Source of the DNA: Nereocystis luetkeana
Lineage: Eukaryota; Sar; Phaeophyceae; Laminariales; Laminariaceae
Assembly: GCA_031213475.1 (NCBI GenBank)
Contig: JARUPZ010000011.1
Coordinates: 2,108,001 to 2,172,000 of the forward strand
DNA length: 64,000 bases
Direction of reading: 5' to 3'
In this document: one piece after another, positions 6,601 to 63,645 of the stretch
How the letters are laid out: every line of letters begins with the position of its first letter
Position numbering within the stretch: position 1 is the stretch's first letter
The notes under the pieces: model-generated
Database searches by the model: none
What the model saw: only the letters and a program-made list of their open reading frames with translations
Told to the model about the DNA's origin: nothing
Position numbers and translations under genes: made by a program

Positions 6601-6659
6601 ACAGGTTGTCGAAAAAACTCTGGGAGTAGCCGATGCCACCAAGGAGCGCATGCGTTTGC

Positions 6660-8489: not shown

Positions 8490-9450
8490 TGCCCGTAGAT
8501 GTTCCGAACTCACGGACATATTCATGAGATACGAAGTATATAGAGCTCAATGTGTATTGCAAGCGTCAACTATAAATAGGTGGGGTCTCTAAAACACAGC
8601 AGTTGTTTCGTAACCCTTCTACACTCACTGGAGTACATACACATACTTGACTCTAATTTCAAGCAATGCCATGGGTAGCTCTACGCATTGGACACCCACA
8701 GTGGCGAAAGGTTGGCGCAGGCCGCTTGGCAATTGATTGTGTTTGTTGTTATTGTTGTCCTCACATTCACTAGTCGCCACAATGCAGTCTGTGGCCACAG
8801 GACAGGCTCCATTAACTCTGGAGTGGGATATTGCCTCCGGGGAGGAAAGACTAAAAACAAAAACTAAAATACACAGAAACTGCTTTAACACAAATCGCAT
8901 GCCTCAGACGAAAATAAAGTGAGATGAGCCTAAGCACGTACCGGAAATATATGGTACACGGCTGTACGAGTCGCAACCGAAACCGAGGAGACAACATAAA
9001 AATAACGGGAAAAAATAAAAAATAATACCTGGCAGACGGGATGACACAAACCGACGTTGAAATACGAATTGAACTCGAAAGGGGAAGAAAGAAAGGCTCA
9101 TGGACAAGAAAGCACATATCGGCTGTCGACTCCCATCGCGCTGTGGGCATCTAATTGAGCTGAGGAGGAGCAAATTGGTTGGCGCAAGCCGCTCGTCTGT
9201 GTGTGCGAGAGCCACATCCGTTTCCGTCGCGGTATGGGCATCAATCATAAAGGGGTCGTATTAGATTAGGGGGAAAATGCGTACTAGGCACTGACAGAAT
9301 GTAGGTCAAACCTGGTGAGGGTGACAAGACGGACACGCAATATTAATAGCTCGAAATAGGTCGGACACGAAAAATTCCTTAAATAACGTCGAAGAAATAC
9401 GCATGATCCTGGAGTAGAGACACCGGTTGACACTAACGATACTTCAGTAC
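8490..9450. other. Intergenic, no recognised gene
   Basis: No coding signal or repeat family recognised; A-rich on the plus strand from 8850 to 9110. Confidence 0.35.
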
Positions 9451-9454
9451 AGTA

Positions 9455-9720
9455 GTCTGGTGGTCTAGTGGTTACCCTCGAATGCTAAAGGCTGATACGT
9501 ACGTGAGCTAAACCCCTACCGTGGTGACATTTTGGCTTTAGTTTGCAAAAACAAAAACAATCAATCGCTGAGGCGCACTGCGTGGGTTGGCGCAATTCGA
9601 CGCAAGTCGAAAGAAGGGGCTAAAGTTTTCGCGAGATGAAAAACCAAGGCACGAACCTATAGTGGGGGGGAGAGCCTGCTGTGTAGTGATCCAAGATTTG
9701 AAATACGACTATTAAACATT
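9455..9720 (+). repeat. tRNA-derived SINE family 1, copy 1
   Basis: Starts TCTGGTGGTCTAGTGGTTA (A-box-like) and shares CGCAATTCGACGCAAGTCG and the downstream GGCACG...GAGAGCCTGCT body with 20737-21086. The tRNA B box is decayed and no clean poly-A tail remains. Confidence 0.7.
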
Positions 9721-10128
9721 CGCAGGGTGGAGAGAAAAGTTGGGCGGAGGGATGTATTTTTTTTTTTTAATCGTACAACTGAAAATGCAGCGCCAACGAT
9801 ATGCGTCGTCGTGCGGTTGGTTCCCTAGTGTATATACTACTTGACAGTAGAGCAGGGCAATCGTTGCCCTGCTGTTCCCTAGGTGTTTTACCATGTACCT
9901 GGTAGTATTCCCGTGGTTTTGTGGCGTGTAGATTAAACCTACATGCAGCGCGGAGAGTAGACTGGACACGGCGGTCGCCACTACTTTTGTGTATAAATAC
10001 TCGAAATCTATTACCTGGTACATAAAGCAGCCTAACACAGGGAAAGAAACATCAGGAGCCGATCGAAAGGTGCTGTGGCACGGTATAGGAAGAGTCAAAG
10101 CACAAGACACTGTCACAGACGTAAAAAC

Positions 10129-10367
10129 GCACTGCATCTAATCTGCGGGCCGTTTAGTCTAACCCCACCGGGCACCACGGCCCCTAAAGCAACGCAATGC
10201 TACCCAACCCAACCCAACCAAAACATTTTGTGGCACGTTTGCTACACACCCAACGTCGATGCAGAGAGGCTGATTGGGCAAAACGAATCCGATTACAAAC
10301 GCGCTGCATCTAAAATACGCGGGGCCGTTTTCCCTTACCCCCCCGGACACAAGGGCCCCTATTAATA
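10129..10367. repeat. Diverged direct duplication
   Basis: CTGCATCTAATCTGCGGGCC...ACGGCCCCTA at 10129-10196 recurs at 10301-10361 as CTGCATCTAAAATACGCGGG...AGGGCCCCTA. The second copy is followed by TTAATA (10362-10367) before the alignment resumes. Confidence 0.6.
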
Positions 10368-10369
10368 GC

Positions 10370-12495
10370 GGTCGGGGTTGCGGTTCCCTAGTGTACATAC
10401 TACTTAATACCTGGTAGCAGGCAAGGTTGGACGGTCATATATGGATGAGCTCAATATAGCAGCAATAATGAACGGAGGTGTGATGCAAATTTTAGCTGAG
10501 CGCGAACAAAACAAACGCAGATTGAAGTAGTCATGCATGGTAGCAGGTTCAGTTTTGGTAATATTGTAGAACCGTACTACGGTCACCCTCGCATGGGAGC
10601 AAAACAACGTGATCGAACAACATTTACCTAAAAAGAAATAATAAAACTACCGGTCGGTACGTATTATGGCCTGGCGATGCCGATGTCAGGTAGGACAAAT
10701 CATAACCTCGTCGTATCACGTGGACGTCCGCCTCTCGCCTCTCTTGCCAGTTAGTCTTGCCTGCTTGGTCTATTTAAAGTCGTGCGCGTCATAGACAGGA
10801 CTCACTCCCTACAGCCCTAGGCGTTTCAGATGCGTGCTTTCCATCAATTAGTTCTTCATGTGCCCCTCCATCGCCCTATCCGTCCCTGGGAAGTAAACCG
10901 TCCCTGGGGAGTAAAGACGCCCACCCTACAATAGTGACCGACCGAGATCCCAGTTCACACTGGGAAACCCCAGCTCACACCGGGGAATTAGACTATTGAT
11001 AGATTGTCATAGATAACACGGCGCCGACTATTCCGGGCTGGGCTACTGGAAGAAAAATACATCCCCCGTCGCCCTCCGCGCACAAGCGCTCAAAACCCGC
11101 CGAGTAGGCCAGGCTAGGCCAGGCCAGGCCAGGCGACCAAGATGGGCTATTCCCTTTCTCGTATATAGAAACTTGTTCGTCTGTCTCTTGTTATGTTATG
11201 GGCTACCCAAAGGTGGGAGGACAATAGCCGATTATTTTTTCAATCTATCCAAAATCACACCACCACCACCACGCAGTCTGGCCGTCCGTTCGGTCCGGCC
11301 TGTTTTCTCTCTTTTTCGTCTTTTCCGCGAGGAATTCCCTCCCTCCGCTTGGTTCGTTCGTGCGTTCGTTGCGCGCGCATCGACCACCACGTCCGATAGC
11401 GTTAGGCTATCCGTTCCCGTAGACCACAAAACCAACCACCCCCCCCAACACCACCACCGATTCTGTTTCCGCCGCGCAGCAACAACAGTCCATCGTCCCT
11501 TCTCCTTTCCTGCTAGAATTCTGCCCACCCCCTCACCTTCTGCCTCTCTAGGTTCGACATCCTGTACGTAATCACTGCTGCGTTGCGACCGATCGCCTTC
11601 AAAAAAGAAACCGCCACGACTAAATTCGTAGGCAACAAAAAAAAATATATTTTCATTGCCAACAACATTTCTCGTTGCTGCCTTCCACCCACCCGCCCTG
11701 CCGGCCCCGCCCCCCAACCCTCCACCACACGCCTGCGCACGCGCCGCGCGCGCACTCTCCAGCCACTTGACGCACCCACCGTCTGAAATAGAAGGTCACG
11801 CACCTCTCCCATCCCGACCACGTCAACGTATCATCGGAAGGAGGTACTACTAACCTGCCCCAAACACAAGCCCTAGCGTGCGCTCAGCCAAGCAGACATC
11901 TAAGAAAGCCCTTTCATCGTGGTCGTCAGCCAGGCGACTGAGTGACTACCTGACTCAATAAGGATCAAGGAAAAGAGGCGCAAGGAAGGAGGGGAGTATG
12001 GAGAGGCACACCCGCACTTTTTCCCGCCTCCGCCGCACCAACAAATCCTGTCACACGTTTCGGCCCCAACCAAAAAAGGCAAACAAATTAGATGCAATAA
12101 AAAAAGCTCTCTTTTTCGCTCAGCCAATCATCTTGTCCGCCCGCCCGCCCTCTCCATCTCTCAGGCCACATCAGTTTTCCCCAAGGCAAGTCCCCAGAGT
12201 CCCTTCCCCCACACCCTCTCCCCACCCGGCGACAAGACTCTTTTTTCCTCACGGCCTATCCAACCATCCCTTCCTACCGTGCTTCTTCGTTCTCCGCAGC
12301 TGGACTAAAAAAAAAAAGTGGCCTGCAAAAGCGTCCGCCATGCCCTACACCGTGCCATCCCACGCCATGCAGCACCCGGCACCTGCCATGTCCGCTCGAC
12401 GAGGGACGAAGCAAACGCGAACAAACAAGGGGCTCAACGCATTTCCTCCCCCCAATTCATCCCCCCCCCCCCCCTCCCCAAGAACATTCGCCAGC
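10370..12495. other. Downstream flank of the G3BP-like gene, C/T-rich
   Basis: From about 11250 to 12300 the plus strand is strongly C/T-rich with A runs. This keeps long Pro/Ser/Arg frames open (for example 11998-12801, which overlaps the last G3BP-like exon on the other strand). I recognise no gene. Some of it may be 3' UTR of the G3BP-like transcript. Confidence 0.35.
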
Positions 12496-12643
12496 CTAGG
12501 CCGGCTCTGCCCGTCCTCTAGCCTTGTAACCGCCGCCACCCTCTTTAGGACCGGGGCCGTCAGGACGGTCTCCCCTGCCCGCACCGCCTCCGCCGCGTCC
12601 CGTCCTCCCTCCCGTGGAACGACGGTCGCCCCGCTCGCCGTCC
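12496..12643 (-). CDS. G3BP-like exon 12 (RG-rich tail and stop)
   Basis: Takes the two bases from exon 11 (AG+G = Arg) and encodes an RG/GG-rich tail with TGGRTGRGGGGAGRGD and later KARGRAEPA, ending with TAG. Acceptor CATGTTCAG. The composition continues the RGG box of exon 11, and the total CDS becomes divisible by three. I see no clear poly(A) signal to the left. Confidence 0.75.
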
Positions 12644-15600
12644 CTGAACATGGCAACGCCAACGGTAGCGGTGGCATCCATGTTAACATCAACGGTAACA
12701 TCAACGGTAATAAATATGTTTTCATCACTGATAATCGACACATCAAAATCATGGTGAACATCGACGGTAACATCACCTGTAAAATATACCAGGTATATTA
12801 ATACCAACGGTAACATAACATGTTAACATCAATGAAACGGTAAAATATCAAAGGTAACGGTAACATCAACGGTAACATGCTACGTTAACGTCAACGGCAA
12901 TACCAAAGGTAGAACCCACCGCAACATCATCGGCAACATCCACGTCAAGGACTGTACGAGAAAAAGAAAGAGATATTACGGGGGACCATAGTCAATAGGA
13001 CCTATCGTATACAAAAAAAACTATATATATTTAACCATTTTTACCAACAATAGTTGGTCCTGTTAACTATGGTCCCCCGTAATAGTAGGGATCTACAGCG
13101 AGACTAAAGGGGGGACGAGAAAGTGCACTGGCTGTGCTGAGCAACCGAATCCGATCAACCAATGAACAGCATCGATTATCACGTCGGGGAGGGGGCGGTG
13201 GGTGGGGTGTAAATACCAGGGCTGTTCGCGGGTCACTTGATGTTCACAATGTCACGGGTCGGGTCGGGTCGGGTCAGGAAGTGTTCAAATCTCACGGGTC
13301 GGGTCGGGTCGGGTCAAGATTTTTTCAAAGCTCGCGGGTCGGGTCAAGTCGGGTCAAGAGTTTTTCAAATCTCACGGGTCGGGTCGGGCCGGGTCAAGAG
13401 GTGATGAAAAGCTTACGGGTCGGGTCAGGTCATGACCCGCGAGAAGCGGGTCACTCGCGGGTCGGGCCAGCATGACCCGCGAGTTGTTTTTTGCTGACCC
13501 GCGGGTCGGACCCGCGCATTCGGCTCGCGGACCCGACACTTGAATAACTTCCCGCTCTCTTACTCAAAGGCTTCTCTCGTACCAATACTCCATAACACCG
13601 TAACACCCCTTTGGTATCATATGCAGACATTAAAACACCGCCAAATTCATATACGCATGCCCGCATCCATTCATACCCACTACAGCCAGGTCATATATCG
13701 CTTCGGGGCACTAAAATGAACATTAAATTGTTCTTGAAGCGCCTACCCACGGGCCAGATCCGCGGGTCGAACCTTCGGGTCAAGATAAATGGTCTCGCGG
13801 GTCAAGGTGACCCGACCCGCATGAAACCCGTGTCTAACGGGTCAGTCGGAAAGTGGCGGGTCGGGTCGGGTCGGGTCAGGAGGTTTCGAAATTTCGCGGG
13901 TCGGGTCGGGTCGGGTCAAGAGGCTTTCGAAATCTCGCGGGTCGGGTCGGGTCAAGTCAACATACCTAAAAAAAATCGCGGGTCGGGTCGGGTCAGCTGA
14001 CCCGACCCGACCCGACCCGACCCGTGAGGTTTGACCTGACCCGCGAAAAGCCCTGGTAAATACTTATGTCATTCATGCATGGCCGTAGTCGTGTGACCAT
14101 AGACCCTCGCATCCCTACAGTGTCGAGACAGAATACATCGGGTTTCCACCGACCAGGCAGACATTGCTTGCACCACAAGCGTGAAGCGCCGTGAGGCGTG
14201 GGGAGGGAGGAGGGTGTCTTACTCGACAAAACAAATATATCTAACTCGCCAAGTATCTCCCCTCTCGCATCGACTCCTCGAAGGCTTTGAGCAATTGCCT
14301 TCGACCATCTATAAATACAGCATGTATACCTGGTACGAACATAAACGGAGCTCTACTGCAGGTGAGGTCAACGGTAAAAAATGCCACCCAGACACAGCAG
14401 CGGTTGCGCCGCCGATTGGATTCGATGCTTGATAAGACTGTTTCAGGATGCGCAAGAGGCCAGTGGCACACACCTTGCTGACAAATACGCCACCATTTCG
14501 GAGCGCCCCTAATTACTACTTTTAGCAGCGTGAAAAACGCCACATCACACTATAGGTGTACCAGGCCCCGACCAGCGGAGGGACTGCTGAGTCCAGCCAA
14601 CCCAAACAAACGCTCCAAAAAAGCGACTGGTCAAGGCGCTTCGGCACTGCCCACCAAGAAAAACCAAGAAAAAAAAAAATGAAAATCATAAAATGCCGCA
14701 AACAAGATACCTGCCGTCCCTTCCTCCCGACGCACGGCCACGTCCCCCATTGCGGCCACCCCTCCCGCCCACGCCGTGCTCTGCGACGAAACGGGGGAAA
14801 AAAGGGACAGAGAGCAACGGAAAAAGAGTACGAGGTATCACATCAGACACTAACAGACTTTTTTTTAGGCTACGTAATAGACATGCACTCATTTTTCGTG
14901 CGTGGTGCGGACCTATTCAGACAACGAAAAAAAAAAACAGGGTGTGATCCATGTGATCATAGCCACGTGATGGATCCCGGAGAAAGAAAGAAACAAACAA
15001 AGAAAGAGAAAAAGCAACACACTCGACACAAACCTATCAACACCCGTCCATCGTTAACCCTTTTAGGACTGCAGTCCTGTTTTGGGGACAAACTATGCAG
15101 AATTTGACTGGTTTGTCCTCAAAACGGAACTGCGGTTCTAAAAGGGTTAATGCCGTGCTTGGGGACGGACACGCCTGACAACAAAAACAACACATGGGCA
15201 TCAGCAGTTTCTGTAAAAGCGATGTAGGGGGGGGGGGGAGGGGGCTGTCGTTCGACCGCTTGGTGTGATGGGTTCGCCCCAAGAGAGGGGTGGCCCCCTG
15301 CTACAGTGGGTAGGTACCCCAAAAGTTGAGAGCACCCCGTGACATTTTTTTTTTTTTGCTTTTCCCATTTACCTGGTGCTAAATAAATCATATATAGCAT
15401 TCGCTCTACTTTTCTCGGTCCCTTCTAGCCGTGTCTCAGATCCGGGATCAACATACCAGGCTTTCCTCCCCGCTCTCCCCACTACAAGATTCGTGCCCAG
15501 CATTACTGTCGCTCTTAATGCAAAAGACTTCCCTCGTCGACCCGCGTCGATTTTTTTACGTCGAATTTTTCAAGCCTCAACAAGCGATCTCAACTACACA

Positions 15601-18600
15601 CTGCTCTTATCTGCAATGGGCGATTACATACAGCTTCCATAAGGCGGGGCATGTCAATTTCATCGCTCTTGCGTCCAGAATTATCGGGGCTGTCCTCGGT
15701 AATTTACCGGTAGTTACCGCGAATACACCACGGTTGGTGGTAAATGCCACGATTCCTTGAATTACTGTGGTTTTCGCTTACCGCGGAAGCGTGCCGTGCT
15801 AATGCCGTGATTTCTGATTACTGTACCGCGACTGCCGAGGTTTTCGCTGTGACTGCGGAGGCGTGCCGTGGACATACCGCAATCGCGAGTAACCGTGCCA
15901 TGATCTACCGTATCAGCATTTTATGCCGAAGACAACCGTGCGAATGATCCTATCCCACTCTCAACTTGGGGCAACTCATCGACCTCGGCAAAAAAACATC
16001 GTAAGCCAATGGCGACTAACTTTCACTCAAAAATGAGGGTGCACTCCGAAAAAAAAAACTTTATGTTTCGAGCTCCATCTAAATTCCGTCCCAAGAGTCA
16101 TCGCGCGCGCTGGGAGCGGGCAGCGAACACAACAGCAGTTATCCTTCCACAGCGCTTATCGGTCGAAAGAGCTATATTCCTGATTGCATCGGTTGTTCAT
16201 CATAAGGATGCAAATACACAGCAGCGCAACCAGTACGATGGTTTTCGTCTGTGAACGCATTTCCAGCGCTACTACCTCCTGGTGATAGTAGAGCTTGCAA
16301 CAAGCTTGCTCCGCGGATGCATCACGCGCGTACGTAGAGCAGCAGAGTGGACTACCCTCCAACGGCCTCCGAAGGATAACTTAAGGATAGTCGGACGGTC
16401 ATGAGAACAATCGCCGAAGCATGACATCACACGAAGACTTACCTCCCCTGGAAGGGCGAAGCATAGGCGAGTGGCGCTCCTCAACGACGAGCAGCTTGCG
16501 GTTCACGTAGTGTTCCTTGGTGCTGATGATGAAAAAGCCACAGAGGAACAGAGGAACAGAGGAAAACACGAAATCGGCGACACGGGGACAACACAGGTTA
16601 TTCCTGAGGCTTCACCAATGATCCTGCACAACACGACAACACTAACAACTATTAATAGTAACACCCCACCACCACCACCACCATCACCACCAACACAATC
16701 GCACAAATGCGATGGTTCCCCAGCGCAGCCGATCAAGGTAGGTTGAAATTTTTTGGCAAGGCGAACCAACATGAAAAATAAACACGCCCAACGCTCCAAA
16801 ACTGCCAAAAGGCTGGCCGAGCCCGTATCTCGCGCATCGTAAGAGTAGCGCTTTCGGCCGGCGGACAACACCTACTCACAGCGACACGCCAACTGACACA
16901 CAGCTAAAGCACGAGCACGAGCAGGAGCTGCCGATCATCCATCACGACATATCAACGCCGACCATTCATCATAAAAAACCAGCCATCGATTACCAACCAT
17001 GGATTTAATAAATCGCCAATCAATAATCAATCCATCCACCATTAATCGTCAATCACTAGTCATCGATCACCAACCATGCCTTGCATCAACCATCAACCGC
17101 CAATCAACCTGCTGCTCTTCACGAAAACCGCGAACCAATCACCAGTCCTCCATCACCAACCATGCCTTTCACCCTCCAACCATCATCAACCAACCCTGCA
17201 TGTCACCAGTCACCAAGCATCTCACTTAAGGGCACTCTGCACGCATTCGTTGGTTCGGTAGTCGATGAAGGCGTAGCCGCGAGTGGGGTTCATGCTGATG
17301 CCCGTCACGTCGCCGTAAGCCGAGAAATGAGCGACCATTTCCTCCCTGTCGATGGTCATGTCCACCTGAACCAAACCAATCGGACACACCCAGGCCAAGA
17401 TTAATAGGAACAATCACAACAGACAGGAATCGTAGCAATTGTGAAAAGGATCCAAACACACAGGCCATGTTTAATACCTTGGGGCAGGAGTTTATCATGC
17501 CGAACTGAAGTCGTAGTCATCGCGAATACCAGGTATGATAGGAGTGTCTATATTAATAGTCGTTAATCACGAATAGTCAGCGTTCACACAATACATGGAT
17601 AATAATAGTGAGCGCTATTACACCAGGTGCCGAATAATGGTACACACGTACAATAATAATATGTCGGAAAATCCAGACGTTAAGCAGGGCGGCATGGCAC
17701 GACGAGGGGAGGTCACCGTGTCCGCTTGTGCCAACTTTTGATACTTGAGATGGCCGCTATTTGCGCATGATTTCTACTCAATATCCTGGCATTACTCAAT
17801 ATGCTGGGTATCACCCAATATACTGGTACCACTCAAACGTACTGGCATTACTCAATCTACTGGTGATATTCGATTATTGGTACTACTCAGTGGTACTTGG
17901 GTACTGCTCGATGTGCAGGTATAGTTCATGCGCACTATTTTATTACACCGGCAACCATACTGGAGTTGATAAACTACGTGGTAGCCATCTCCTCCCTTAG
18001 GTATCATTTTACCACTCCGAGAATTATCCGATAATCCGCAAGCGAAATACCTCCCACCCCAAGGGGTGGTGACAAAAAAAATAAAGCGACTTGCGCCGCC
18101 ACATTGGCTCGGGCGGTGGATAGCAGGACAATACACACAAAACGAAAGAACATCACGACAAACACAAAACAATTAACAAAGGAAACCACAAAAACAACGA
18201 GAAAGAAAAGAAAAACGAAACAAAACCAAAACAAAACCGAAACACGTCACAGAAACAAACAGAACAAAACCAACGCGTGGAGCACGCATGCAATGCAGCA
18301 ACGAGCTTTGGGGCGCTAAATTGATACATGTTCAATAACCCCGACCTAATAAACCGATTGCTAATTATGAATGTACGTGCATTGCACAAGGATCGCCATC
18401 AGCAACCTTCGTATGGCGCACCCCAAACAGAAACAAGAAGGCGTGCGAAGCGTGCCGATTTTTGCGCTTGTATTGTGATAGTATACCTTGCGCACGAAGA
18501 TCGAGGTAGCGGGCATTATCTCCCCGTTGCCCGCGGCAGCGGCCTCACGGGCAGCAGCGGCAGATGCAGCAACCGCCGGGGAAGCGTGGTGGGGGATGTG

Positions 18601-19671: not shown

Positions 19672-19702
<31 letters not shown>

Positions 19703-32918: not shown

Positions 32919-32999
32919 CCCTCCTCCCGCCTCCTACCTCCCTGGGGGGCGACTGGACACAAGTTAGCTTCACCCGCGAGGGCCTGAACGTCAAGTCAC

Positions 33000-35575: not shown

Positions 35576-35583
35576 GTAAATCG

Positions 35584-43060: not shown

Positions 43061-43318
43061 ATGAATGATATCAACTCCGCTCGGTCGGTGCGTAGTAGGA
43101 CTCAAGTCGGCGCCACCAACAGGTTTTCGGCCTTACCATCTCCATTGGCTCCAGATAGTCTTCGCGAAAACAAAAAGGGGGTAGCAAGTGGCCCACACAG
43201 GGCAAGCCGGGCTGGTGCTATTAGGCCGCGTTCCACATCGCCATTGTCTGCTGCTGCTGCTGCTGCGGCCACCTCCAAGTGTAAAGAACCTCTGCGATCA
43301 AGCCGAAGTCACGAATTG
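43061..43318 (+). CDS. EF-hand gene exon 1
   Basis: Begins CACCATGAATGAT, a good start context, and encodes MNDINSARSVRSRTQVGATN onward. A (CTG)n repeat is read as an Ala run. Donor GTGAGA, phase 0. An upstream frame extension lacks an ATG. Confidence 0.6.
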
Positions 43319-55300: not shown

Positions 55301-55831
55301 GGACGCCATGCAGTATAGTACCACATTGCAGGCCAGGCACTGCTGTGAAGAAAAGGGGTAGAGTCATCCCTGATGATCATCATCATGTTCTCACACAAGC
55401 TCGTTCCCCTGAGATCTAGCTTGTGGCCACCTCATACGTGTCTGTACGACTGGGATGTAGTGTGTCTTGCGTACAATACTTACAAGTGTTTGCGGGTTTC
55501 TAGAATACTGGTTGAAGCGACCGATCGACCTACCGACCTGGGTCCACGAACGCACACGAGTTGACGACGGTTACAGATATCCTGCTGCGCGAGTTCCTAT
55601 ATATCGACAGTTATACTATTAATACCTGGTATCTCCATCGAAAGGATTATCGGTATAGAGGTGACCTCGTAACAAAATATCGCGCCTGCTGTGGACACGC
55701 TGTATCGCAACGCAGGGGAGGGAGTAACGCGTGCCCGTGCGTTTCCTATAAGGAGCGTCTGTTCGCTCTTGCGAGGAATACTCGTAAGCTCCGACATGAA
55801 AATAAACAACATCAACGACAACAAACAACTA

Positions 55832-55862
<31 letters not shown>

Positions 55863-58800
55863 AACAACAACAGCAACAACACCAGCAACAACAACAACAA
55901 CAGCAACAACAGGCTACCTGTTGATGAGCTGAGATCGTTACCCTGTCATTATTTTTTGTGCTGTCGCAGGACCGTTCGCCGCTGTCTCGCCACAAGAGGC
56001 GCTGTGGTCGGACAAGAAGGCGTTGTCTAGCTTGTCGTCGAGCAAAGAGCTATTCTCCTCGCTCGAAGAAGAGCAGTTGCAGGTGATGAAGGATGAGCGT
56101 TTGCTCCCAAAAATTGAAACCGTTTTCAAGAAACGTTTCGCGGCAACCACGACAGTTAAAATGCAATAGCGTAGTGTGTGCGGTGCCGTGTATAATACCT
56201 GTTTGATGACACTACGTGGGGGGACAGTACGAAAAGTTTCCGGACATTTTTTTTTCCCACGCCGCAAGCAGCCGTACTGTGTCACCGCTGGGCACACCTC
56301 AACCACGTTCGGGCGCCGCCACTGGACACAGGCCGGCAGACCAGGTTCGCTTTGTCCCTAGGTAACACTATTTTTCCGAGGACAACGGCCTTCTTCTGCT
56401 ATCGGGGTGGCCATTTGCAGATTTTTATGCGTTGGCCGCTTTTAGTTGCGAGTAGACAGCGCTATAACTAAAAAGTAGCCCTTCAGGTCATTCCTTCTGA
56501 CGACCATGTTTCTCGCACGCTTCTCGCCCACCGTACCGAGCTATCGTTCGTGTAAATGCCCTTCCACAATGCGTGCGTGCTTGGTGTTCTGGGCACTTCA
56601 TATTTCCTTTCCGAGGGTGTGAAATGTCAAGCCTCACACAGCATTCTGACAGATCATGGTCCGACACCTGTGATCACGTACAAAGCGGCACAATGGCGGT
56701 TCTGTCATGACCTTGGCGGAGCAAACTCAACGGTCTTCGTTTTACTTCAAACTTGACCCCGAGATCATCCTTCTCGCCGTTTCAACCGCTTTGAATGAAA
56801 CGGAACCGGAACATAGGCGGCGAAAGCGAGCGCTTTGGCGCGAACCCGCAAGGTGGCGAAGTCAACGTGGGCAGACATCGGTCATGGGGGCATCGGCAAC
56901 GATGCCGGGACGGACGAATCTTCTTCTTACTACGCTGGTCCTGTGAGTTGCTGAGTTACCGTGCCTGATTCTGTTTGTGCTGTCTTTTCATATTTTCGCA
57001 TTTTCGACGAGTCTGGGGTGTACAAGGTATTATGATATTATATAATTCAACCCTCCGGCGGACGGGTGAAATAAATCTTACGTTCAGTATAATCCATTGT
57101 GAAGTGGAGCTCTTATCCGAACCTCGAGCTTCTGTTGTTGAGCTGAAGCGTCTACAGCTGTAGCCCGTTTCTTTCCCAACACATGTCTTTGGGCGTACTT
57201 ACGGAGCTGACAAGGCTTTGCTGCAGCACGGCGTGGGGTTGGTTGCAGAAAGCAGGCCTCCCACGGCTTCGCCTCTCGAAGCCCGTTTTCGTGTGTTACT
57301 TGTTGTTCTTCCTAAAATAGGGAGGATATTCTCGCATTCTAGAATTTTGGGCGAGATTGACGAGTAAGAGGACTGGAGAGTGTGTGGCGTTAGCCAACCA
57401 GCAGCGCAATCCTCCGTGTTGATCTCGCAAGTCGTCTGGTCTACCCAGCGGTTGGCCCAGGTACTGCCAGAGATGAACGCAAACGATCGGATCTTCAACT
57501 GCGACAGGAGTTCTACAACAGCAGGAGTTTGTGGCTCCGTTGTTTACTCGGCACAGCCGTATCAACAACCATCAAACAAAACTAAGCACAGGAGAAAATT
57601 AACGCCTCAGCCTTCATTCAGCCTTTAGGCTTTATTTAATCTTTGATTATTTTAGCACTGCCTTAAGCATAAACCTAAACATGACTCTTCAGTAATTCCA
57701 AATGTTTTTTTTACACAGCGGAAGCGCAATCCCTAAGCCCTAGACGGGCTAAGCCTTAAGCTTTATCCTTTAGCCTTGAGTCTCATTGCGCTCCGACCCC
57801 TCCGCCCCCAGCGATTGTTTGGGAGCAATGCGTCGTCTAACCTCGTAGGATTGCTTTGACCCGCGTAAATTTCCCCGGAATGAAGGAGGAGAGGTTCACA
57901 ACGACAAACTCGGAGCGCTACGCCCCACTATTGAAAGAGAAGAAAATAGAAAAGGGGCAGCGATCCGCTGGATTCTACCGTCAACGACAGGGCGACTCTG
58001 CCATGGATGCGTCCCGAAGGCGGCATAGGAGCGACGTGAGTACGGACAAATTATGATGGAAGGGTGGGTGCGCAGCAAGATCGATGGTGGGATTTCCGGT
58101 CGAAATGTTCGTGGATTCCTCGTTGTTTTTTCGTGTTTTGGGAAAACTCTCGCGTTTTGTAACCCTTTTACAACTGCTTCGTTTTGTAACCCTTTTACAA
58201 CTGCTTGAATAATGCCACAAATTCCTAGTGATTGTTCTCTAAAACGTCACCGTTTTACCAGGGGTGCACATCAAAAATGAGAATACGACACCCCATCACC
58301 CATTGTCGAGACCCAGACACAGGGGAGTATACTAAAATCAAATTTTACAAAATCGTTAACAAAAACTCGTTTTTCGTAATTTCGCCCAGAATTCCCACCA
58401 TAATGTTGGAAAAAAAAAAAACGTCGACCTTTTTAGGAGTGTGGTTTCGTTTGTATGTTTGTCGTGCACCCTGTGTGGTTGGCAAAAGTAAGACTGAACC
58501 GTAGGTGTGGTTCAGGCACTTGGCCGGACATACCTGGTATCGATGTCTCCCTCATGTTATATGGAAAGGTTGGGGTTTGTTTCACGAATGCGAGTTTCTT
58601 CTAATTTCGACGGCGACAGAACAGCTCGGACCCTTTTCCCGTTGCCTGACGCGCTCACCCGCCTTCGCCATACCACTCCCAAAAGGTACACCTGGTACCT
58701 TTTTTGGGCATTCTTCCCCAAAAAGTCAATACCAGGTATATATGTTGTACCTTCCACTCCACCGACGCATGCAAGTTGACGACAGTTGTTACGAACATCC

Positions 58801-61233
58801 TGATGTACGAGTTCCTAGTGGCAGCTCAACTGTCTTTCTCATGTATAGGTATAGCTAGGAAGTCATTTTTTTAGGTCCGGTACAATCAACAGCAGACTGC
58901 TCTATTAACGGGGGACCATAGTAAATAGGACCTACGGTACACACAAAAATGTATATATTTTCTTATTTTTACTAACAATATTTGGTCCTATTTACTATGG
59001 TCCCCCGTAATAGAAGGTGGCCCGGCTGTTCGCTTCCTCTCCCCGGTTGCTATTATATTCCTCTCGTGGTGGCTACATGCGATAAACGATTTTCCCGTAC
59101 ATCTTACCACATTCAAAACTCGGATATACACCTGTACTGTCTGTGCTTCTCATGGAAGGAGCGATCGAGGAAGACGAGAGCACACCTGGAGCGAATATCC
59201 CTTAGCATCAAGACGGAGGAAGTCGCCGCAAGGCTTAAGGGCGAGAGGTGAGCCTCACGGGATGCCCTAGGGACACAACCTCTACCGGTCCTGATCCCAC
59301 CCGATATGACCCCGCCCACAAGGTGCAGAAACATGATAAACCCTGCGCAAGCGCCGCCGGAGGCAACTTCTACCGGACCTGATCCCACCCGGACCTGATC
59401 CACCCGGATCTCCTGCCCCTTCTCTATATTTTGCCGGGGTGACGTTGACCAGTTAACAGTTGCTGAAGGGACATAACAGGTAGTTTGTGTTGTGTAACTA
59501 CTATTAATATTGTGGCCGTTGTTCATCGGGTAGAGCAGTTGCGCCGGGTGTGCGCATCGATCGGTTTTGCAGAAAATTCACTGGCGTGCATGTGCGCCGA
59601 AGAGCGCCAATCAAGCTGCGCCTCTACTTTGGTTTGTTCGCCACCTGGTGGGATACCGTATAGCACGCAAGATAACGCACCCCCTCGTACGAACTTCGAA
59701 GTCTTTGTTTCTCGACAATGGGGAGAGTGTAAACGCCTACATACATACGTCTAGGGAAAGGTCTCGGACGAGATATTGCCATAGCCACTATGTAAATGGT
59801 TGTGTGTGCCTCCTTGTGACGACATATTTCCAAAGCCACCGTTTTGGTTGTGTGTACCCCCCCCCCTTAACCCGTTTAGAACCGCATTCCCGTTTTGGGG
59901 AGAAACCACTCAAACTACAAGTAGTTTGTCCCCTAAACGGGACTGCGGTTCTAAAGGGGTTAAGGCATGCTTTGAAGAAAACCGGCGCGGAAAATCGTCC
60001 CAGGGTGTGCGTTATCTTCATTATAGTGTACTACGCCCTACCTCGGCATGCTTCGTCCAGATGTACGACTGCCGAGTATGCGAGCGTTTACACACCTCGG
60101 ATAGAGTACCTACCTGTAGATTCTCTAGACTCTCACCTGCCGTTACGAGATGTTCAGGATCTGTGTAGTACAAGTTCAACCCAGAAACTATATGTGTTCT
60201 AGACCCTGCAGAATATACGGGATGAGAAGAGACCTAACGCAAAAAAGGCGACACATGTTTCACACCTGCTCGTAGCCTAAAAGCTATGCCACTCTTTACG
60301 GGAATAATAGCCACGTTTAAAGTTCTTCACATCATAGTCTGAACGTAGTTTATATTTCCTAAGAGGGTGGCACACCCGTTCTACGTAAAGGCGGGATGAG
60401 TCTAGAATACTTCCGCGCGGCCCCAACCAAGTAGCTTTCGCCTCTCTGGTCAGTATCATACGCATGGTATTTTGTTTAGTAGCCTGCTCATTAGCTAACT
60501 ACACCGGTAGCCAGGATGCCCACCCCTCGAGTGGTGTGGCGCGCACGGCGCACAAGAGCGCAGTCTGGTCTGCCTCTACTGGCGCCCTATTGTTTCCATG
60601 ATAAACGCCGGATTCGGTCCCAACCAGTTAGGCTTGGCCGTCCCCGACCCTACTTTTGACTTCTAATCCTTTTGGGACTCCGAGTTAGCGACCAAAACAA
60701 GCACCAGGTGGAATTGTGGTCTTACCAATCAACCATTGCCTACGAGCAGCGCTAGCGTCAGCACTACGAGCAGGATCATGTTGTGCCCCGTACCCGCCGT
60801 ACGACTCCTTGCCTTGTCACTCGGATACCAATTGATGTCATTCCCCAATCACCCAGTGGCCTAAACTGTGATGCCCACATTTTGCCGGCAATATACCCCC
60901 TCTAGTCCCTAGAGAGTTAATCACAACCAATGAGTATAGGGGAGCGTGAGGTGACATGGTGTGGGAGGGTTCGGAAACACCTGAGGCACGCCCCCACATT
61001 CCGTGGAGACACTGTAGTCACCCTTTCCGACGCTTGAAATAGTGGTGGTCGTCGAACGGCTCTCTAACAGCAATTCTGTTTTCGGTTGGCACCCCAACCA
61101 GGCGTGTGCGTGGTAAGGCCCGCACGCGACTGCGGTACAACCAGTGGGTGAACAGCATGGACAACTGGCTTAGCGACGACGTGCCGAAGCTGGCAGACTA
61201 CGACAGGCGACAGTTCCCCGAGCAGAACATGAG
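43061..61233 (+). CDS. Multi-exon EF-hand calcium-binding protein with long C-terminal extension, 3' end beyond window
   Basis: Exons by splice signal and phase: 43061-43318, 44237-44492, 45109-45254, 46684-46887, 47263-47319, 48479-48631, 49447-49593, 50644-50805, 51711-51808, 52452-52519, 53376-53509, 54340-54414, 54610-54751, 55970-56082, 57227-57363, 57405-about 57557, 57849-58035, 59159-59247, 61102-61233. The EF loop DHNCDGLLDFDE (aa about 247-258) is canonical. A second, DTDKSGSIELDE, is split over the junction 46887/47263 and becomes canonical only after splicing. A calmodulin-like pair follows: a degenerate loop, then DTKGDGRITLNQ (Gln at position 12 instead of Glu). The N-terminus is Ser/Ala-rich with a CTG-encoded Ala run. 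The C-terminal half is charged, with no family I recognise. EF-hand calcium binding is confident; overall role unknown. The exon pair around 57.4 kb is uncertain, because the intron would be only 41 nt. I see no stop before 61233 in this model. Confidence 0.75.
43499..43636 (+). repeat. Tandem duplication, about 68-bp unit
   Basis: CGCCCCATTATGTGCATTTG...CCTCCTACTCGTACGTACGCT repeated without visible differences in intron 1 of the EF-hand gene. Confidence 0.9.
44237..44492 (+). CDS. EF-hand gene exon 2 (Ser-rich, acidic)
   Basis: Reads HSNKASNGSSDKSLSTSQSM and continues to TKMAYVL. Donor GTGAAA leaves one base, which fits exon 3. An acceptor 12 nt upstream (exon start 44225) is equally in phase. 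Confidence 0.65.
45109..45254 (+). CDS. EF-hand gene exon 3
   Basis: Acceptor TTTTCGGCAG; phase 1 in, 0 out. Contains VPVLDPYRYRQLLLDRWI and YGSIKEFFR, an amphipathic, mostly helical-looking stretch just before the EF hands. Donor GTAATT. Confidence 0.7.
46470..46640 (-). repeat. R3 right-part fragment
   Basis: GATCTAGCTCATGTTGCTGGGTGGGAACC...GGTTGGATCTGTACTATGCAGATC, inverted relative to 24.8 kb. In the intron before EF-hand gene exon 4. Confidence 0.65.
46684..46887 (+). CDS. EF-hand gene exon 4 (EF hand 1)
   Basis: Sixty-eight codons. EF loop DHNCDGLLDFDE has Asp at 1, Asn at 3, Asp at 5, Leu at 8 and Glu at 12. The exon ends with DTDK, the first four residues of EF loop 2. Acceptor TTTACAG, weak donor GTGCCT. 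Confidence 0.82.
47263..47319 (+). CDS. EF-hand gene exon 5 (second half of EF hand 2)
   Basis: Nineteen codons, SGSIELDEFVAFLGGAEEP. Joined to exon 4 it completes the loop DTDKSGSIELDE. Acceptor CGGTCAG, donor GTGAGT. The restored loop is strong evidence for the junction. Confidence 0.85.
47710..47960 (-). repeat. R3 right-part fragment with (AGATAGATC)n
   Basis: As at 46.5 kb, with a short AGATAGATC tandem (47735-47775) where other copies have ATACAGATC units. Confidence 0.65.
48240..48400 (+). repeat. GGGCCTTCGCAATTCC degenerate tandem
   Basis: About five units of GGGCCTTCGCAATTCCAATCGCTGTT type, just before EF-hand gene exon 6. Confidence 0.6.
48479..48631 (+). CDS. EF-hand gene exon 6 (basic, Gln-rich)
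   Basis: Fifty-one codons, phase 0 at both ends, with blocks KQEQRRKSQDPEARSVQLQ and RIKNKLSHYLNKV. Donor GTGAGTGAC is strong; the acceptor CCGAAG is weak, so the 5' edge is approximate. Confidence 0.55.
48680..48712 (+). repeat. Poly-G tract
   Basis: Nearly uninterrupted G run after EF-hand gene exon 6, on the transcribed sense strand. Confidence 0.7.
49447..49593 (+). CDS. EF-hand gene exon 7 (degenerate EF hand 3)
   Basis: Forty-nine codons. FAFMSEDTANPGISLPDI aligns with the start of the calmodulin C-lobe, but the loop is altered (Ser at position 1 and an extra residue), so it probably does not bind calcium. Donor GTGAGC. Confidence 0.78.
50210..50440 (+). repeat. GGTACCCGGGTA tandem repeat, unit about 50-57 bp
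   Basis: Four to five units of ATACTCGGGTAGGTACCCGGGTA...AACCTGGTTGTT. In the intron before EF-hand gene exon 8. Confidence 0.8.
50644..50805 (+). CDS. EF-hand gene exon 8 (EF hand 4)
   Basis: Fifty-four codons starting VTEDEVRSLVKEVDTKGDGR. The loop DTKGDGRITLNQ has Gln at position 12. Acceptor ACTGGGCAG after a C/T-rich tract; donor GTCAGA. Confidence 0.82.
50830..50950 (+). repeat. Dispersed repeat R5, copy 3
   Basis: TGCATGGCCGTAGTCGTAGGACCATAG...GCCGGGATGGAGCACGTCGGGTTTTCACCG, 25 bp after the donor of EF-hand gene exon 8. Confidence 0.7.
51230..51310 (+). other. tRNA-like fragment
   Basis: CTGTTAGCTCAGTGGTTATC resembles a tRNA 5' half with A box, but the T arm is not recognisable. Probably a SINE head or tRNA pseudogene in an EF-hand gene intron. 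Confidence 0.35.
51711..51808 (+). CDS. EF-hand gene exon 9
   Basis: Reads SAVDQPPPAETSEEAFLKAR and continues to VPSK, with strong donor GTAAGC (phase 2). An in-frame GTGCCC at 51795 is a weaker alternative donor. Confidence 0.6.
51968..52200 (+). repeat. Dispersed repeat R5, two copies in tandem
   Basis: 51968-52045 is a short copy; 52050-52200 is a longer one that continues GTTTTCACCGACCAGGCAGC...GCGGAGCGACACGTGAGG, matching copy 1. Confidence 0.7.
52452..52519 (+). CDS. EF-hand gene exon 10
   Basis: Follows a T-rich tract and CTGAG. Completes the split Met codon and reads RSFFPLQKYWIPFDDHGLDF. Donor GTATAG, phase 1 out. Confidence 0.55.
52920..53350 (+). repeat. CAACTGTGAAACGCCTGCAA degenerate tandem
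   Basis: Units of roughly 40-60 bp with the core TTCAACTxTGAAACGCCTGCAAxTGGT, repeated about eight times in the intron between EF-hand gene exons 10 and 11. Confidence 0.75.
53376..53509 (+). CDS. EF-hand gene exon 11 (tentative)
   Basis: Phase 1 in, 0 out; reads MERSKKYPSVTGSHFRTPVR and continues to SVTVWAPSGRE before a strong GTGAGC donor. The acceptor GGATGAAG is poor. Confidence 0.45.
54340..54414 (+). CDS. EF-hand gene exon 12 (tentative)
   Basis: Twenty-five codons, DLLDLSRAFFVHSKAEDRK onward, phase 0/0, acceptor TCTGGAG, donor GTGAAG. The open frame continues past the donor, so the 3' edge is uncertain. Confidence 0.45.
54610..54751 (+). CDS. EF-hand gene exon 13
   Basis: Reads VVDVWDLPPPTRHLSRTKSS and on to ASFACDG. 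Acceptor CTTTCGAAG, donor GTGTGC. Phase 1 out fits the next exon. Confidence 0.5.
55820..55916 (+). repeat. (CAA/CAG)n microsatellite
   Basis: Nearly pure ACAACAACA with interspersed CAG, in the intron about 50 bp before EF-hand gene exon 14. The Gln and Cys frames it opens are not genes. Confidence 0.85.
55970..56082 (+). CDS. EF-hand gene exon 14
   Basis: Acceptor CTGTCGCAG; reads PFAAVSPQEALWSDKKALSS and on to SLEEEQLQ, then GTGATG. If the donor is not used, the frame runs on in a protein-like way to TAG at 56167, a possible alternative C-terminus. Confidence 0.6.
57227..57363 (+). CDS. EF-hand gene exon 15
   Basis: Acceptor TTGCTGCAG, phase 0; reads HGVGLVAESRPPTASPLEAR, then a hydrophobic RVLLVVLPKIGRIF. 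Strong donor GTAAGAGG, phase 2. An in-frame TAA overlaps the donor. Confidence 0.5.
57405..57557 (+). CDS. EF-hand gene exon 16 (edges uncertain)
   Basis: In phase with the previous exon, CAG|C at 57405 gives DAILRVDLASRLVYPAVGPG and then a QLRQEFYNSRSLWL stretch. The implied intron is only 41 nt, far shorter than all others here, and the donor is not obvious. This exon may be misplaced. Confidence 0.35.
57849..58035 (+). CDS. EF-hand gene exon 17 (basic)
   Basis: Phase 2 in; reads TRVNFPGMKEERFTTTNSER, then KEKKIEKGQRSAGFYRQRQ, ending at a strong GTGAGTACG donor in phase 0. Confidence 0.55.
58903..59012. mobile_element. TA-flanked MITE (TTACGGGGGACC family), copy 5
   Basis: Right end CTATGGTCCCCCGTAA-TA intact; left end has one extra A. 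No inserts at the sites used in copies 2 and 4. In the intron between EF-hand gene exons 17 and 18. Confidence 0.85.
59159..59247 (+). CDS. EF-hand gene exon 18 (charged helix)
   Basis: Reads ERSRKTRAHLERISLSIKTE and on to RLKGE. Acceptor CATGGAAG, donor GTGAGC (phase 2). The charge pattern suggests a helix or coiled coil. Confidence 0.55.
59757..60232 (+). repeat. R3 copy hosting the TTAA MITE
   Basis: AAGGTCTCGGACGAGATATT...CGTCCCAGGGTGTGCGTTATCTT aligns with 24.45-24.56 kb; the right part ends near 60232. Interrupted by the MITE at 59869-59963. Between EF-hand gene exons 18 and 19. Confidence 0.75.
59869..59963. mobile_element. TTAA MITE, copy 5, inserted in repeat R3
   Basis: TTAA on each side. 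It splits the R3 sequence that is continuous at 985-1000, giving a precise insertion with duplicated TTAA. Confidence 0.9.
60655..60925. repeat. Dispersed repeat R6, copy 1
   Basis: Shares GTACGACTCCTTGCCTTG, CCAATCAC and TAGTCCCxAGAG blocks in the same order with 62710-62990. Intron of the EF-hand gene; no coding potential. Confidence 0.6.
61102..61233 (+). CDS. EF-hand gene exon 19
   Basis: Acceptor CCCCAACCAG. Completes an Arg codon and reads VRGKARTRLRYNQWVNSMDN, then WLSDDVPKLADYDRRQF. Donor GTGGGA leaves phase 2. A following exon must exist, in or beyond the last 2.7 kb. Confidence 0.6.
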
Positions 61234-61589
61234 GTGGGATTAGCGTTAGTCACCTCAAAAACAAGTATGGCAACCAGAAAAGAAAACGTAAGTTGACGTC
61301 ACCTGATATCTGCTATCTGCAGCGACCATATTGAAGTGTCCAATTTCACCAAAAAGTGACGTCACGACCCTGGATGGCGCCACCGGTCGATCAGGGATTT
61401 TTTTCCCATCAATCAGTTATTCCTTTCCAAAATATAGGAAAACTGCGAGCACGATTTACGGAATACCTGTCTCTCGCGGTGGGCGGCTTATCGTTTGGCA
61501 CACGCGGGTTTGTCGGCGGTGAGCAAAGCACCCGGTACTCGTTCTGCATGCAATCGTTACGGTTTCATCCAATCAGGGATAGATGATGA

Positions 61590-61830
61590 CCTAGATAATC
61601 TATTAATAGATACTAACCTGCCGTTATGATATACTGTGCAGGATCTGCATAGTACAGGTCCAACCCAGAAAACATGTCCAAGATCATGCATATTGCACTG
61701 CTCCCACCCGTCAACATGAGCTACTGTAGTTTACACAGACGAGGAATATATGTATCTATCTGCTCCGAAGTATCTAGATGATGAAGTGGGAATGATCTGT
61801 AGCTGATAGGACCGATCTGTGAAAGGTTAA
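61590..61830 (+). repeat. R3 right-part fragment
   Basis: GCAGGATCTGCATAGTACAGGTCCAACCC...GATGAAGTGGGA matches 24.78-24.98 kb. CTGTA at 61724-61728 follows a TA and is absent from the other copies. Confidence 0.65.
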
Positions 61831-62187
61831 GGTTGCATTCAATCACGAAGCCAAAATAAACTGGGGCACTGCTAAAGTAGGCTTAAACGTAGGAAATAGG
61901 CATCGCTGCAGTTTCTCTCGGTGGACGTATCTCGTTTGCCATCTGTTACGAGGGTCTATACAGTAATAGTAATACATAGTAAAGCATGATATTACATACC
62001 AGGTACCAGGTAGTAGTACATAGTGCTACATAGTATTACAAGTAGATAGTAATCAGAGCCCACAATGAACCCAAAAACTAGATCCCCCCTATGTAAACAC
62101 GCCATATTTTGGTTCTCATTACTACGTTCTCTGGCAGTAACATTCATTGTACATACTGAGAGTATTTGGGTGCAGTGGTAAGACGCG

Positions 62188-62345
62188 AGTCCACGAGGGA
62201 AGACAGTGCTGAGCCCTCATTTTGCGATAAAAAAGCCTTCCAAGGCGCGAACCGCAGTGGCTAGGGGGGAGGAGAGTCTGCTACGTGACGCCGGATCTGA
62301 GTTACGGCGAGGAGGGAGAGAGAAAAAATAGAACACAACGATAAC
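62188..62345 (+). repeat. SINE family 1, copy 6 (3' part)
   Basis: TCCACGAGGGAAGACAG...GAGTCTGCTACGTGACGCCGGATCTGAGTTACGGCG matches the 3' half of the SINE body. Confidence 0.7.
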
Positions 62346-62709
62346 AAATGGGAAGGGGGAAACAAAATATGGTAGGATATTTTTAACTTGATGTTTTGGT
62401 GTAGCACTTACGAGGGAGAGAGAAAAGAAGGGCAAATATAATAAATTGGGAAGGAAAAAAAAACGTGGTTGGATAATTATATCTTGACGTTTTTTGTGTA
62501 GTACTTGCAATACTCCCTTCAGTCTAATCCGTTTGGATGGAAGACACTACACTCCGTCCTGATGCTATGCAGAGCGCGAATCCTTGCCCTACAACCGACC
62601 CATGCTGCAAAAGGGATACTACGTAGTAGCACCTAAATTTTCTGGGACTCTCCTACTGTAGGTTGAGGGACTCCAGCAACCGAGTTTGATGAACAAAAAA
62701 AGTCTAAGC

Positions 62710-62990
62710 TTACAACCTTATAACCTCTCTGGGGGCCCGAGACAGCGACCAAAGCAATGATAAGTCTAGCGCTATCAACCACCTATGAACAGCGTCAGCG
62801 CCCAGCAGTATGAACGGATAGGATAATGTTCTACGCCCGTGTCTGTGCAGTACGACTCCTTGCCTTGAAACTTGGACACCATGTTGTAGAACATCACCCC
62901 CCAATCACGCGGTGGCCGTCGCTGTAGTCGTCACTCTTTATCGCCAATTTTCCCCCCTCTCTGTAGTCCCAAGAGGGTTGGGCCCGATAC
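62710..62990. repeat. Dispersed repeat R6, copy 2
   Basis: Second copy of the 60.66-60.93 kb repeat, moderately diverged. Confidence 0.6.
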
Positions 62991-63645
62991 GCACAACCAT
63001 TACACTACCCGCAGGAGATGACTCTCCCGGGTAGCTATCTCCACCGCACCTGCCCCTCTTGCGGGTCAGGTCGGGTCAACGTGCCCTAGCGCCAATGGCA
63101 ACCGTAGACTGTTCTGATGCTGTAACGGGAACTATGGGTTAAATTGACACCCGACACGAATTTTGAACGTGGAAGTGTGGTGAGCTTAAGCTTTATTTTT
63201 ACCAATCCGCCGGAGGATTGAAGAAAACAAAATGAATCGGGTACAACAATGTTGGGTCTATAGTAGTTTGAGAGTTATCATGGTTGCTACCTGGTACAAT
63301 GGTTGAGTACCATGTCCGTCGGTGACAAAATAACGTTTGGTCTAAAAGAGCGCGACCCATACCGTAGCATGCATCAACCATTGCCTCATCCTTGAGTAGG
63401 CGGCAGTTCACCAACTCCCTCCCATTTCCGTGCCATGACACTGCTTGATTGCCTTCTCTGCCTAGGGTACGGGGCGGACAGCAGGTGCACGAGGCTCTCG
63501 GGGGACCCATGGCGATCGCTGTCTAGATAGAGGGTGGTGCTGCTGGGCTGGAGGGACCCTATCGAGGGGCGTTCATACGGAAGCACGCGCTTTGATGTGT
63601 CTAGCGGTTGTCGTGTTATCTGCTTGGTCAAAAGCGGGATACACT

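What the first reader, a model, noticed from the sequence alone, without database searches (positions are those of the whole stretch)
9342..63297. Extreme excess of TACC(A/T)GGTA across the window
Reading both strands I counted 33 exact TACCAGGTA/TACCTGGTA copies (for example 9895, 10014, 14328, 20629, 25296, two at 27263, 29513, two at 33553, 34571, 37013, 39159, 41008, 43975, 55621, 58730, two at 61995, 63289), plus several one-off variants. About 0.5 would be expected by chance in 64 kb. They occur in introns, intergenic DNA and inside MITEs, and I saw none inside the called coding exons. The core is palindromic except for the middle base, like the TAC(A/T)GTA scar left by Sleeping Beauty-type elements, but two bases longer. 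I infer they are excision scars of a Tc1/mariner-like transposon whose ends begin CC(A/T)GG and which cuts with a 5-nt stagger.
Basis: partly seen in the sequence, partly recalled or inferred. Interest (0 to 1): 0.9.

Follow-up and report, generated by a model that had tools for sequence, protein, structure and literature searches.

The report
Genome-wide transposon excision scars
The nine-letter sequence TACC(A/T)GGTA is most likely the scar left when a jumping gene cut itself out of a TA site; this genome carries a very large number of them, with an unusually long five-base footprint.

Summary
Observation confirmed. The window holds 34 TACCWGGTA; shuffles give a mean of 0.36, maximum 2 of 100. 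The 465-Mb assembly, eukaryotic by its content, holds 182,395 against 1,744 for the reversed motif. CCWGG elsewhere is not in excess (505 outside the 9-mer; 538 expected in all), though one-sided TA forms are (119 against 76), as decayed scars would be.

It behaves as an excision footprint. Repeat copies carrying it have sister copies with a bare TA exactly there: 22029 against three window copies; 3 of the 10 sampled sites (of 111) that had any spanning paralog alignment, and none of the 10 had an exact filled paralog. Scars overlap at exactly 7 bp, sharing a TA (6 of 110 gaps; 8 of 99). Flanks show a symmetric target preference to +/-7 bp, also after neighbouring scars are dropped. Minor products (CCAGGG, hardly CCTGGG) fit self-annealing CCAGG overhangs.

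Excision scars: well supported. Five-nt stagger: best inference; a review gives 2 or 3 (PMC3878927, passages). No donor with CCAGG ends and no transposase was found; two transposase families went unsearched. TATTAATA looks like a second scar type.

The parts
9896..9904 (.). TACCWGGTA scar (TACCTGGTA on +)
10012..10020 (.). TACCWGGTA scar
10408..10416 (.). TACCWGGTA scar
12787..12795 (.). TACCWGGTA scar, directly followed by a TATTAATA at 12796
14327..14335 (.). TACCWGGTA scar
17527..17535 (.). TACCWGGTA scar
20626..20634 (.). TACCWGGTA scar
22029..22037 (.). TACCTGGTA scar inside a D9 MITE copy; three window paralogs (12974, 30708, 58900) have bare TA here
23850..23858 (.). TACCWGGTA scar sharing its TA with a TATTAATA at 23857
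25295..25303 (.). TACCWGGTA scar
26300..26308 (.). TACCWGGTA scar
27262..27279 (.). two abutting scars TACCAGGTA-TACCAGGTA
29512..29520 (.). TACCWGGTA scar
29737..29745 (.). TACCWGGTA scar
33554..33569 (.). double scar TACCTGGTACCTGGTA sharing one TA
34570..34578 (.). TACCWGGTA scar
35334..35342 (.). TACCWGGTA scar
37012..37020 (.). TACCWGGTA scar
37563..37571 (.). TACCWGGTA scar
38017..38025 (.). TACCWGGTA scar
38316..38324 (.). TACCWGGTA scar
38509..38517 (.). TACCWGGTA scar
39159..39167 (.). TACCWGGTA scar
41010..41018 (.). TACCWGGTA scar
41172..41180 (.). TACCWGGTA scar
43976..43984 (.). TACCWGGTA scar
55623..55631 (.). TACCWGGTA scar sharing its TA with a TATTAATA at 55617
58531..58539 (.). 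TACCWGGTA scar
58730..58738 (.). TACCWGGTA scar
61997..62012 (.). double scar TACCAGGTACCAGGTA sharing one TA
63288..63296 (.). TACCWGGTA scar
12974..13085 (+). D9 MITE: TA-flanked, ends TTACGGGGG, about 110 bp; empty-site reference
22007..22122 (+). D9 MITE copy carrying the 22029 scar
30709..30817 (+). D9 MITE copy, empty site
38781..38901 (+). D9 MITE copy with two other scar-like inserts
38803..38810 (.). TATTAATA at the same TA that carries TACCTGGTA in the 22029 copy; paralogs have TA
38816..38822 (.). TACAGTA (the form of a Sleeping Beauty footprint) where paralogs have TA
58900..59013 (+). D9 MITE copy, empty site
22948..22956 (.). TACCATGTA; one paralog (46640-46439) has bare TA: decayed or variant scar

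Best explanation
TACC(A/T)GGTA is the footprint of a cut-and-paste DNA element that inserts at TA (duplicating it) and later leaves. Shown: in sister repeat copies, TA stands where the marked copy has TACCWGGTA; most sites lie in unrelated flanks; the sites have their own symmetric target preference; scar TAs are themselves hit again. Inferred: the element's ends read CCAGG, the non-transferred strand is cut 5 nt inside the element, and each flank keeps a 3' overhang CCAGG. The two overhangs anneal (CC with GG on both sides, an A-A mismatch in the middle), the mismatch is settled to A-T, and the break is sealed as TA-CCWGG-TA. Annealing slipped by one base, or trimming, gives the rarer CCAGGG and CCAG scars. 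The element most likely works like a Tc1/mariner transposon or its MITEs; membership is not established.
For: Empty sites: 22029 against three window paralogs. Over the 264-kb sample (111 sites), 10 sites had a spanning paralog alignment at E <= 1e-4; 3 of these 10 lack exactly 7 bp in the paralog (two in D9 MITEs, one in an L018 repeat) and 0 have an exact filled paralog. Of 16 D9 copies, two carry an intact and one a decayed scar, at two TAs. Counts: 34 against 0.36, 77 against 1.93, 182,395 against 1,744. CCWGG outside the 9-mer: 505, against 538 expected for all CCWGG. Offsets of exactly 7 bp: 6 of 110 gaps, 8 of 99. Target preference Y-A-T-n-n-T-W outward from TA, chi-square 65, 74 and 64 at +1, +6, +7 (222 flanks); after dropping 33 flanks that begin with CC or another scar: 64, 48 and 59 (189 flanks). 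Similar bias in 17 copies from a second source. Minor products: CCAGGG 10 against 0.7, CCTGGG 1 against 0.5, CCAG 30 against 12.2, 3-bp CCA 39 against 34.1. Of 100 listed scar-adjacent CCWGGV, 37 were CCAGGG and 11 CCTGGG.
Against: No TA-flanked element with CCAGG ends in 264 kb, apart from one that reads as hAT. PF13358 gave 0 matches in the assembly (30 candidates scored); PF03184 and PF01359 did not complete. So many scars with rare or vanished donors is odd. Only three clean filled/empty sites were seen, two of them in one MITE family. The other 7 of the 10 spanning alignments were untidy; one (L023 4960 with the window at 23833-23863) joins two scar-bearing sites over about 30 bp with a 2-bp gap. 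In one search (E up to 0.1) some 18-28-bp alignments centred on the 9-mer join two filled sites (12787/34570, 23850/55623, 37012/26300 and others); I read them as shared target preference, not shared ancestry. In an unfiltered list of TA-X-TA inserts between repeat copies, low-complexity ones (TATA 8, TACTA 6) and TATTAATA (5) outnumber TACCAGGTA (2). Five of the 13 CCAGGG-TA cases are copies of one repeat. CCATGG, predicted by the 3-nt rival, is also somewhat raised (3 against 0.4).
Confidence: 0.78

Rival explanations
1. Scar of a TA-targeting element with the usual 3-nt stagger: overhangs CCA (a mariner-like end) are joined with a one-base overlap, giving CCWGG.
For: Ends beginning CCAGG are recalled for Mos1 (recalled, not from a call). 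A review gives 2 or 3 bp overhangs for Tc1/mariner (PMC3878927, passages). CCATGG, a product it predicts, is 3 against 0.4.
Against: It predicts frequent 3-bp CCA scars (TACCATA 39 against 34.1) and does not predict CCAGGG (10 against 0.7); it offers no base pairing to explain why one product dominates.
Confidence: 0.15
2. A protein-binding, splicing or regulatory palindrome kept by selection.
Against: Bare TA in sister repeat copies, 7-bp offsets sharing a TA, no excess of CCWGG outside the 9-mer, and TATTAATA at the same TA in another MITE copy.
Confidence: 0.03
3. Part of a dispersed repeat or satellite that spread with the 9-mer in it.
For: One repeat did spread with a double scar in it (L047-L050, L055).
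Against: At E <= 1e-4, 0 of 111 sampled sites have an exact filled paralog in the shared flank, though only 10 had any spanning alignment.
Confidence: 0.02
4. Programmed DNA elimination at TA, as in ciliate IESs, rather than ordinary transposition.
For: Would explain many scars and few visible donors.
Against: Paramecium-type excision is recalled to leave a single TA, unlike this (recalled, not tested).
Confidence: 0.02

Closest known systems
Sleeping Beauty / Frog Prince (Tc1/mariner) excision footprint C(A/T)GTA (PMC3878927, passages)
   Same: TA target; palindromic footprint with an A/T middle base; a self-annealing 3' overhang as explanation
   Different: Overhang 3 nt (CAG, recalled) there, inferred 5 nt (CCAGG) here; two bases longer; donor unknown here
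mariner elements such as Mos1 (ends CCAGG..., recalled)
   Same: TA target and apparently the same first five bases
   Different: Mos1 is recalled to leave 3-bp footprints; that class is not in excess here; no mariner-type transposase was found, though PF01359 did not complete
Mariner-Tc1 elements of the brown alga Ectocarpus (PMC12477816, passages)
   Same: Almost 12,000 copies, mostly non-autonomous, in one eukaryotic genome
   Different: 'footprint' and 'excision' have 0 occurrences in its main text; the window's organism was not identified
hAT
   Same: An 839-bp hAT-like element in the window begins CAGGG right after a TSD ending in C
   Different: Its duplication is 8 bp (GTAAATAC); the scar's empty site is TA

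Membership tests
Tc1/mariner | TA target, TA on both sides of the insert | tested here: met
   Sister copies have TA where the marked copy has TA-CCWGG-TA
Tc1/mariner | Symmetric target preference around TA | tested here: met
   Y-A-T-n-n-T-W outward; likeness to published Tc1/SB target consensus is recalled, not tested
Tc1/mariner | Terminal inverted repeats flanked by TA (donor element) | tested here: inconclusive
   No CCAGG-ended TA-flanked element in 264 kb; a few thousand copies in the assembly could be missed
Tc1/mariner | DDE/D transposase | tested here: inconclusive
   PF13358: 0 matches, 30 candidates scored; PF03184 and PF01359 unanswered
Tc1/mariner | 2- or 3-nt 3' overhang at excision | tested here: inconclusive
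   Products point to 5 nt, against the reviewed range; no cleavage was mapped
hAT | 8-bp target duplication | tested here: not met
   Empty sites show TA only
piggyBac | TTAA target, footprint-free excision | tested here: not met
   Target is TA and 7 bp are left

The most novel reading that the evidence does not exclude
A TA-targeting transposase lineage that cuts 5 nt inside its ends has written some 180,000 identical scars, about one per 2.5 kb, into one eukaryotic genome, together with at least one and probably two further scar types from other families. The genome then holds a countable archive of past excisions that far outnumber the surviving donors.
Probability: 0.55. Interest if true: 0.85.

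Novelty: new variant of a known kind. Interest (0 to 1): 0.74.

Why it matters
Cut-and-paste transposition is mostly studied through surviving copies; excisions are rarely countable. Here each excision seems to have left the same recognisable word, so excision number, target choice, repair fidelity and relative age could be read from sequence alone. A 5-nt stagger would lie outside the 2-3 nt range given in review, and a self-complementary overhang would explain why one footprint dominates. Scars at this density would also confound motif searches and intron comparisons in this lineage.

Tried and rejected
The double scar in IMG/VR: 9 loci, 8 with just the two overlapping copies and one with three, so chance. 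Two window-repeat patterns and an RT alignment found nothing in viral contigs. The RT alignment found one locus in genome contigs, in a 'Rickettsiales' MAG.

Candidate donor 13214-14058 (TA-CCAGGG...CCCTGG-TA): rejected as hAT-like. Its ends read CAGGG with an 8-bp duplication GTAAATAC, and a second copy starts CAGGG after TT; that copy's right end was not found.

A bare CCWGG (Dcm-like) motif: rejected. Pattern TACCWGGTACCWGGV, meant to catch donors sitting in old scars: 1,458 and 1,377 matches on the two strands, reversed control 5 and 5. Of the first 100 listed, 37 CCAGGG, 25 CCTGGC, 15 CCAGGC, 11 CCTGGG, 7 CCTGGA, 5 CCAGGA; CCTGGC is probably decayed scar. I fetched 20 of the CCAGGG sites: 13 go on with TA (five are copies of one repeat), two of the other 7 read CCAGGGGTA, and I saw no shared donor end. 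Donors beginning CCAGGT would have been missed by that pattern.

Age: 120 non-central one-off variants against 75 expected, beside 111 exact, suggests up to about 5% change per site; some are alternative footprints, so this is a rough upper guess.

The 264-kb sample used throughout includes the window itself.
Full report
WHAT IS THERE. An order-3 Markov model expects 0.73; 100 dinucleotide-preserving shuffles gave a mean of 0.36 and a maximum of 2. The window lies in an assembly of 465,085,209 bases in 1,987 contigs, which I take as eukaryotic from its content (LTR retroelement and EF-hand exons; MITEs). That assembly holds 182,395 copies, against 1,744 of the motif read backwards. Twenty 10-kb stretches from contigs C1-C20 hold 77, against 1.93 expected and 0 of the reversed motif. 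The excess needs TA on both sides: of 616 CCWGG in the 264-kb sample (window plus those stretches), 111 are in TACCWGGTA and 505 elsewhere, with 538 expected in all; forms with TA on one side only are mildly raised (119 against 76), as decayed scars would be.

EMPTY SITES. The key result came from a MITE family in the window (here D9: TA-flanked, about 110 bp, ends TTACGGGGG). The copy at 22007-22122 has TACCTGGTA where the copies at 12974, 30708 and 58900 have just TA. Of 16 D9 copies aligned from 264 kb, two carry an intact scar (22029; L032 7056) and one a decayed scar (L020), at two different TAs. In a test of all 111 sampled sites, 10 had a paralog alignment spanning the site at E <= 1e-4. 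In 3 of these 10 the paralog lacks exactly 7 bp (two in D9, one in an L018 repeat); 0 have an exact filled paralog; the other 7 were untidy, and one of them (L023 4960 with the window) joins two scar-bearing sites over about 30 bp. At laxer cut-offs, 18-28-bp alignments centred on the 9-mer join some filled sites, which I read as shared target preference. Outside the sample, one repeat did spread with a double scar in it (L047-L050, L055). So most sites look like separate events, but the number of clean filled/empty pairs is small.

REPEATED HITS AND TARGET CHOICE. Copies overlap by sharing a TA (offset exactly 7 bp) in 6 of 110 gaps of the sample and 8 of 99 gaps of the whole-genome listing. 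At about 0.4 copies per kb this is more than 100 times chance; it is natural if new insertions land on old scar TAs. Reading outward from the TA, flanks prefer Y-A-T-n-n-T-W on both sides, chi-square 65, 74 and 64 at +1, +6 and +7 against all TAs. A neighbouring scar would itself put TA at +6/+7, so I dropped the 33 of 222 flanks that begin with CC or another scar type; the preference stays (64, 48 and 59; 53 at +2). Seventeen copies in seven loci of a second source (the contaminated MAG) lean the same way (+6 T 17 of 34, +7 A 19 of 34). Six of those seven loci were picked because they carry the 9-mer, so their density says nothing; the whole MAG has 23 against 8 control, and L010, picked by its reverse transcriptase, has 3 in 13.9 kb.

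FIVE-BASE STAGGER. The palindrome is what two 3' overhangs 5'-CCAGG would give on annealing: CC pairs with GG twice, A faces A, and repair leaves A-T. CCWGG is the main product (111 against 2.7). Minor products are CCAGGG (10 against 0.7) but hardly CCTGGG (1 against 0.5), CCAG (30 against 12.2; CCTG 15 against 8.6) and CCGG (15 against 4.3); the 3-bp form CCA is near expectation (39 against 34.1) and CCATGG slightly raised (3 against 0.4). The excess of CCAGGG over CCTGGG points to CCAGG as the end; in the whole-genome listing of scar-adjacent CCWGGV it was 37 to 11 of 100, and 13 of 20 fetched CCAGGG sites go on with TA, five of them in one repeat. A 3-nt overhang CCA predicts CCA and CCATGG instead. 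This is inference from products; no cleavage was observed. A review gives 2 or 3 bp overhangs for Tc1/mariner and the footprint C(A/T)GTA for Sleeping Beauty (PMC3878927, passages).

OTHER SCARS. TATTAATA is also in excess (22 in the window against 0.73 by shuffling; 74 against 6.0 in 264 kb). In the D9 copy at 38781 it sits at the TA that carries TACCTGGTA at 22029, where paralogs have TA. D9 ends TTAC/GTAA beside TA, so TA-TT-AA-TA would be its own 2-nt footprint. TATTAATA flanks prefer C before and G after (27 of 44), and by eye so do D9 insertion sites in the alignment (C in 10 of 16 left flanks, G in 10 of the 15 right flanks with an intact TA). TACAGTA occurs in the same copy where paralogs have TA; TAC(A/T)GTA is 110 against 39 in 264 kb. 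Whole-genome counts of these two were not made.

WHAT IS MISSING. No donor with CCAGG ends was found in 264 kb; by my arithmetic this still allows some thousands of copies in the assembly. The one candidate, at 13214-14058, reads as a hAT-like element with an 8-bp duplication GTAAATAC. PF13358 gave no match, 30 candidates scored. The search service was busy for most later requests, so PF03184 and PF01359 remain open. The organism is not identified; a brown alga is my guess from genome size, base composition and gene style, not a result, and the test for it (PF19114) did not complete.

PRINT. No paper in the held open-access library has TACCAGGTA or TACCTGGTA as a separate word (the 9-mer inside longer strings was not searched), and none holds 'brown algae', 'mariner', 'footprint' and 'excision' together. 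Most subscription papers are not in that library.

VERDICT. My own odds: excision scars about 0.93; a 5-nt stagger with CCAGG ends about 0.75 given that; Tc1/mariner membership about 0.65, not established.

Noticed in passing
9341-61608, 22 sites: TATTAATA palindrome in large excess (22 against 0.73), apparently a second scar type linked to the TTAC-ended D9 MITE
   Followed up: partly
13209-14063: hAT-like element, ends CAGGGCTG, 8-bp TSD GTAAATAC, internal CGGGTC arrays; a second copy starts at about 63648, right end not found within 3 kb beyond the window
   Followed up: partly
15054-15153, 41238-41337, 59867-59966: Inverted-repeat family with TTAACCC...GGGTTAA-like ends, piggyBac-like in form; the likeness is recalled
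   Followed up: no
3082-7671 (-): LTR-type retroelement remains (RVT_1 at 6908-7501), 71-75% identical in DNA to contig JALZUV010000217.1 of a Rickettsiales MAG, which points to eukaryotic contamination there
   Followed up: partly
20883-21316: Palindromic element with 199-nt arms, 93% complementary
   Followed up: no
25326-25688: Tandem array of the 11-mer GGTAACCCTAC
   Followed up: no
264-kb sample (window, L015-L034): TACGAGTA (32 against 10.5) and TACGGTA (84 against 33.4; part from the 11-mer array) may be further scar types
   Followed up: no
46666-51009 (+): Stretches matching EF-hand families, below Pfam's curated cut-offs, far apart as in a gene with long introns; no TACCWGGTA between 43984 and 55623
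   Followed up: no
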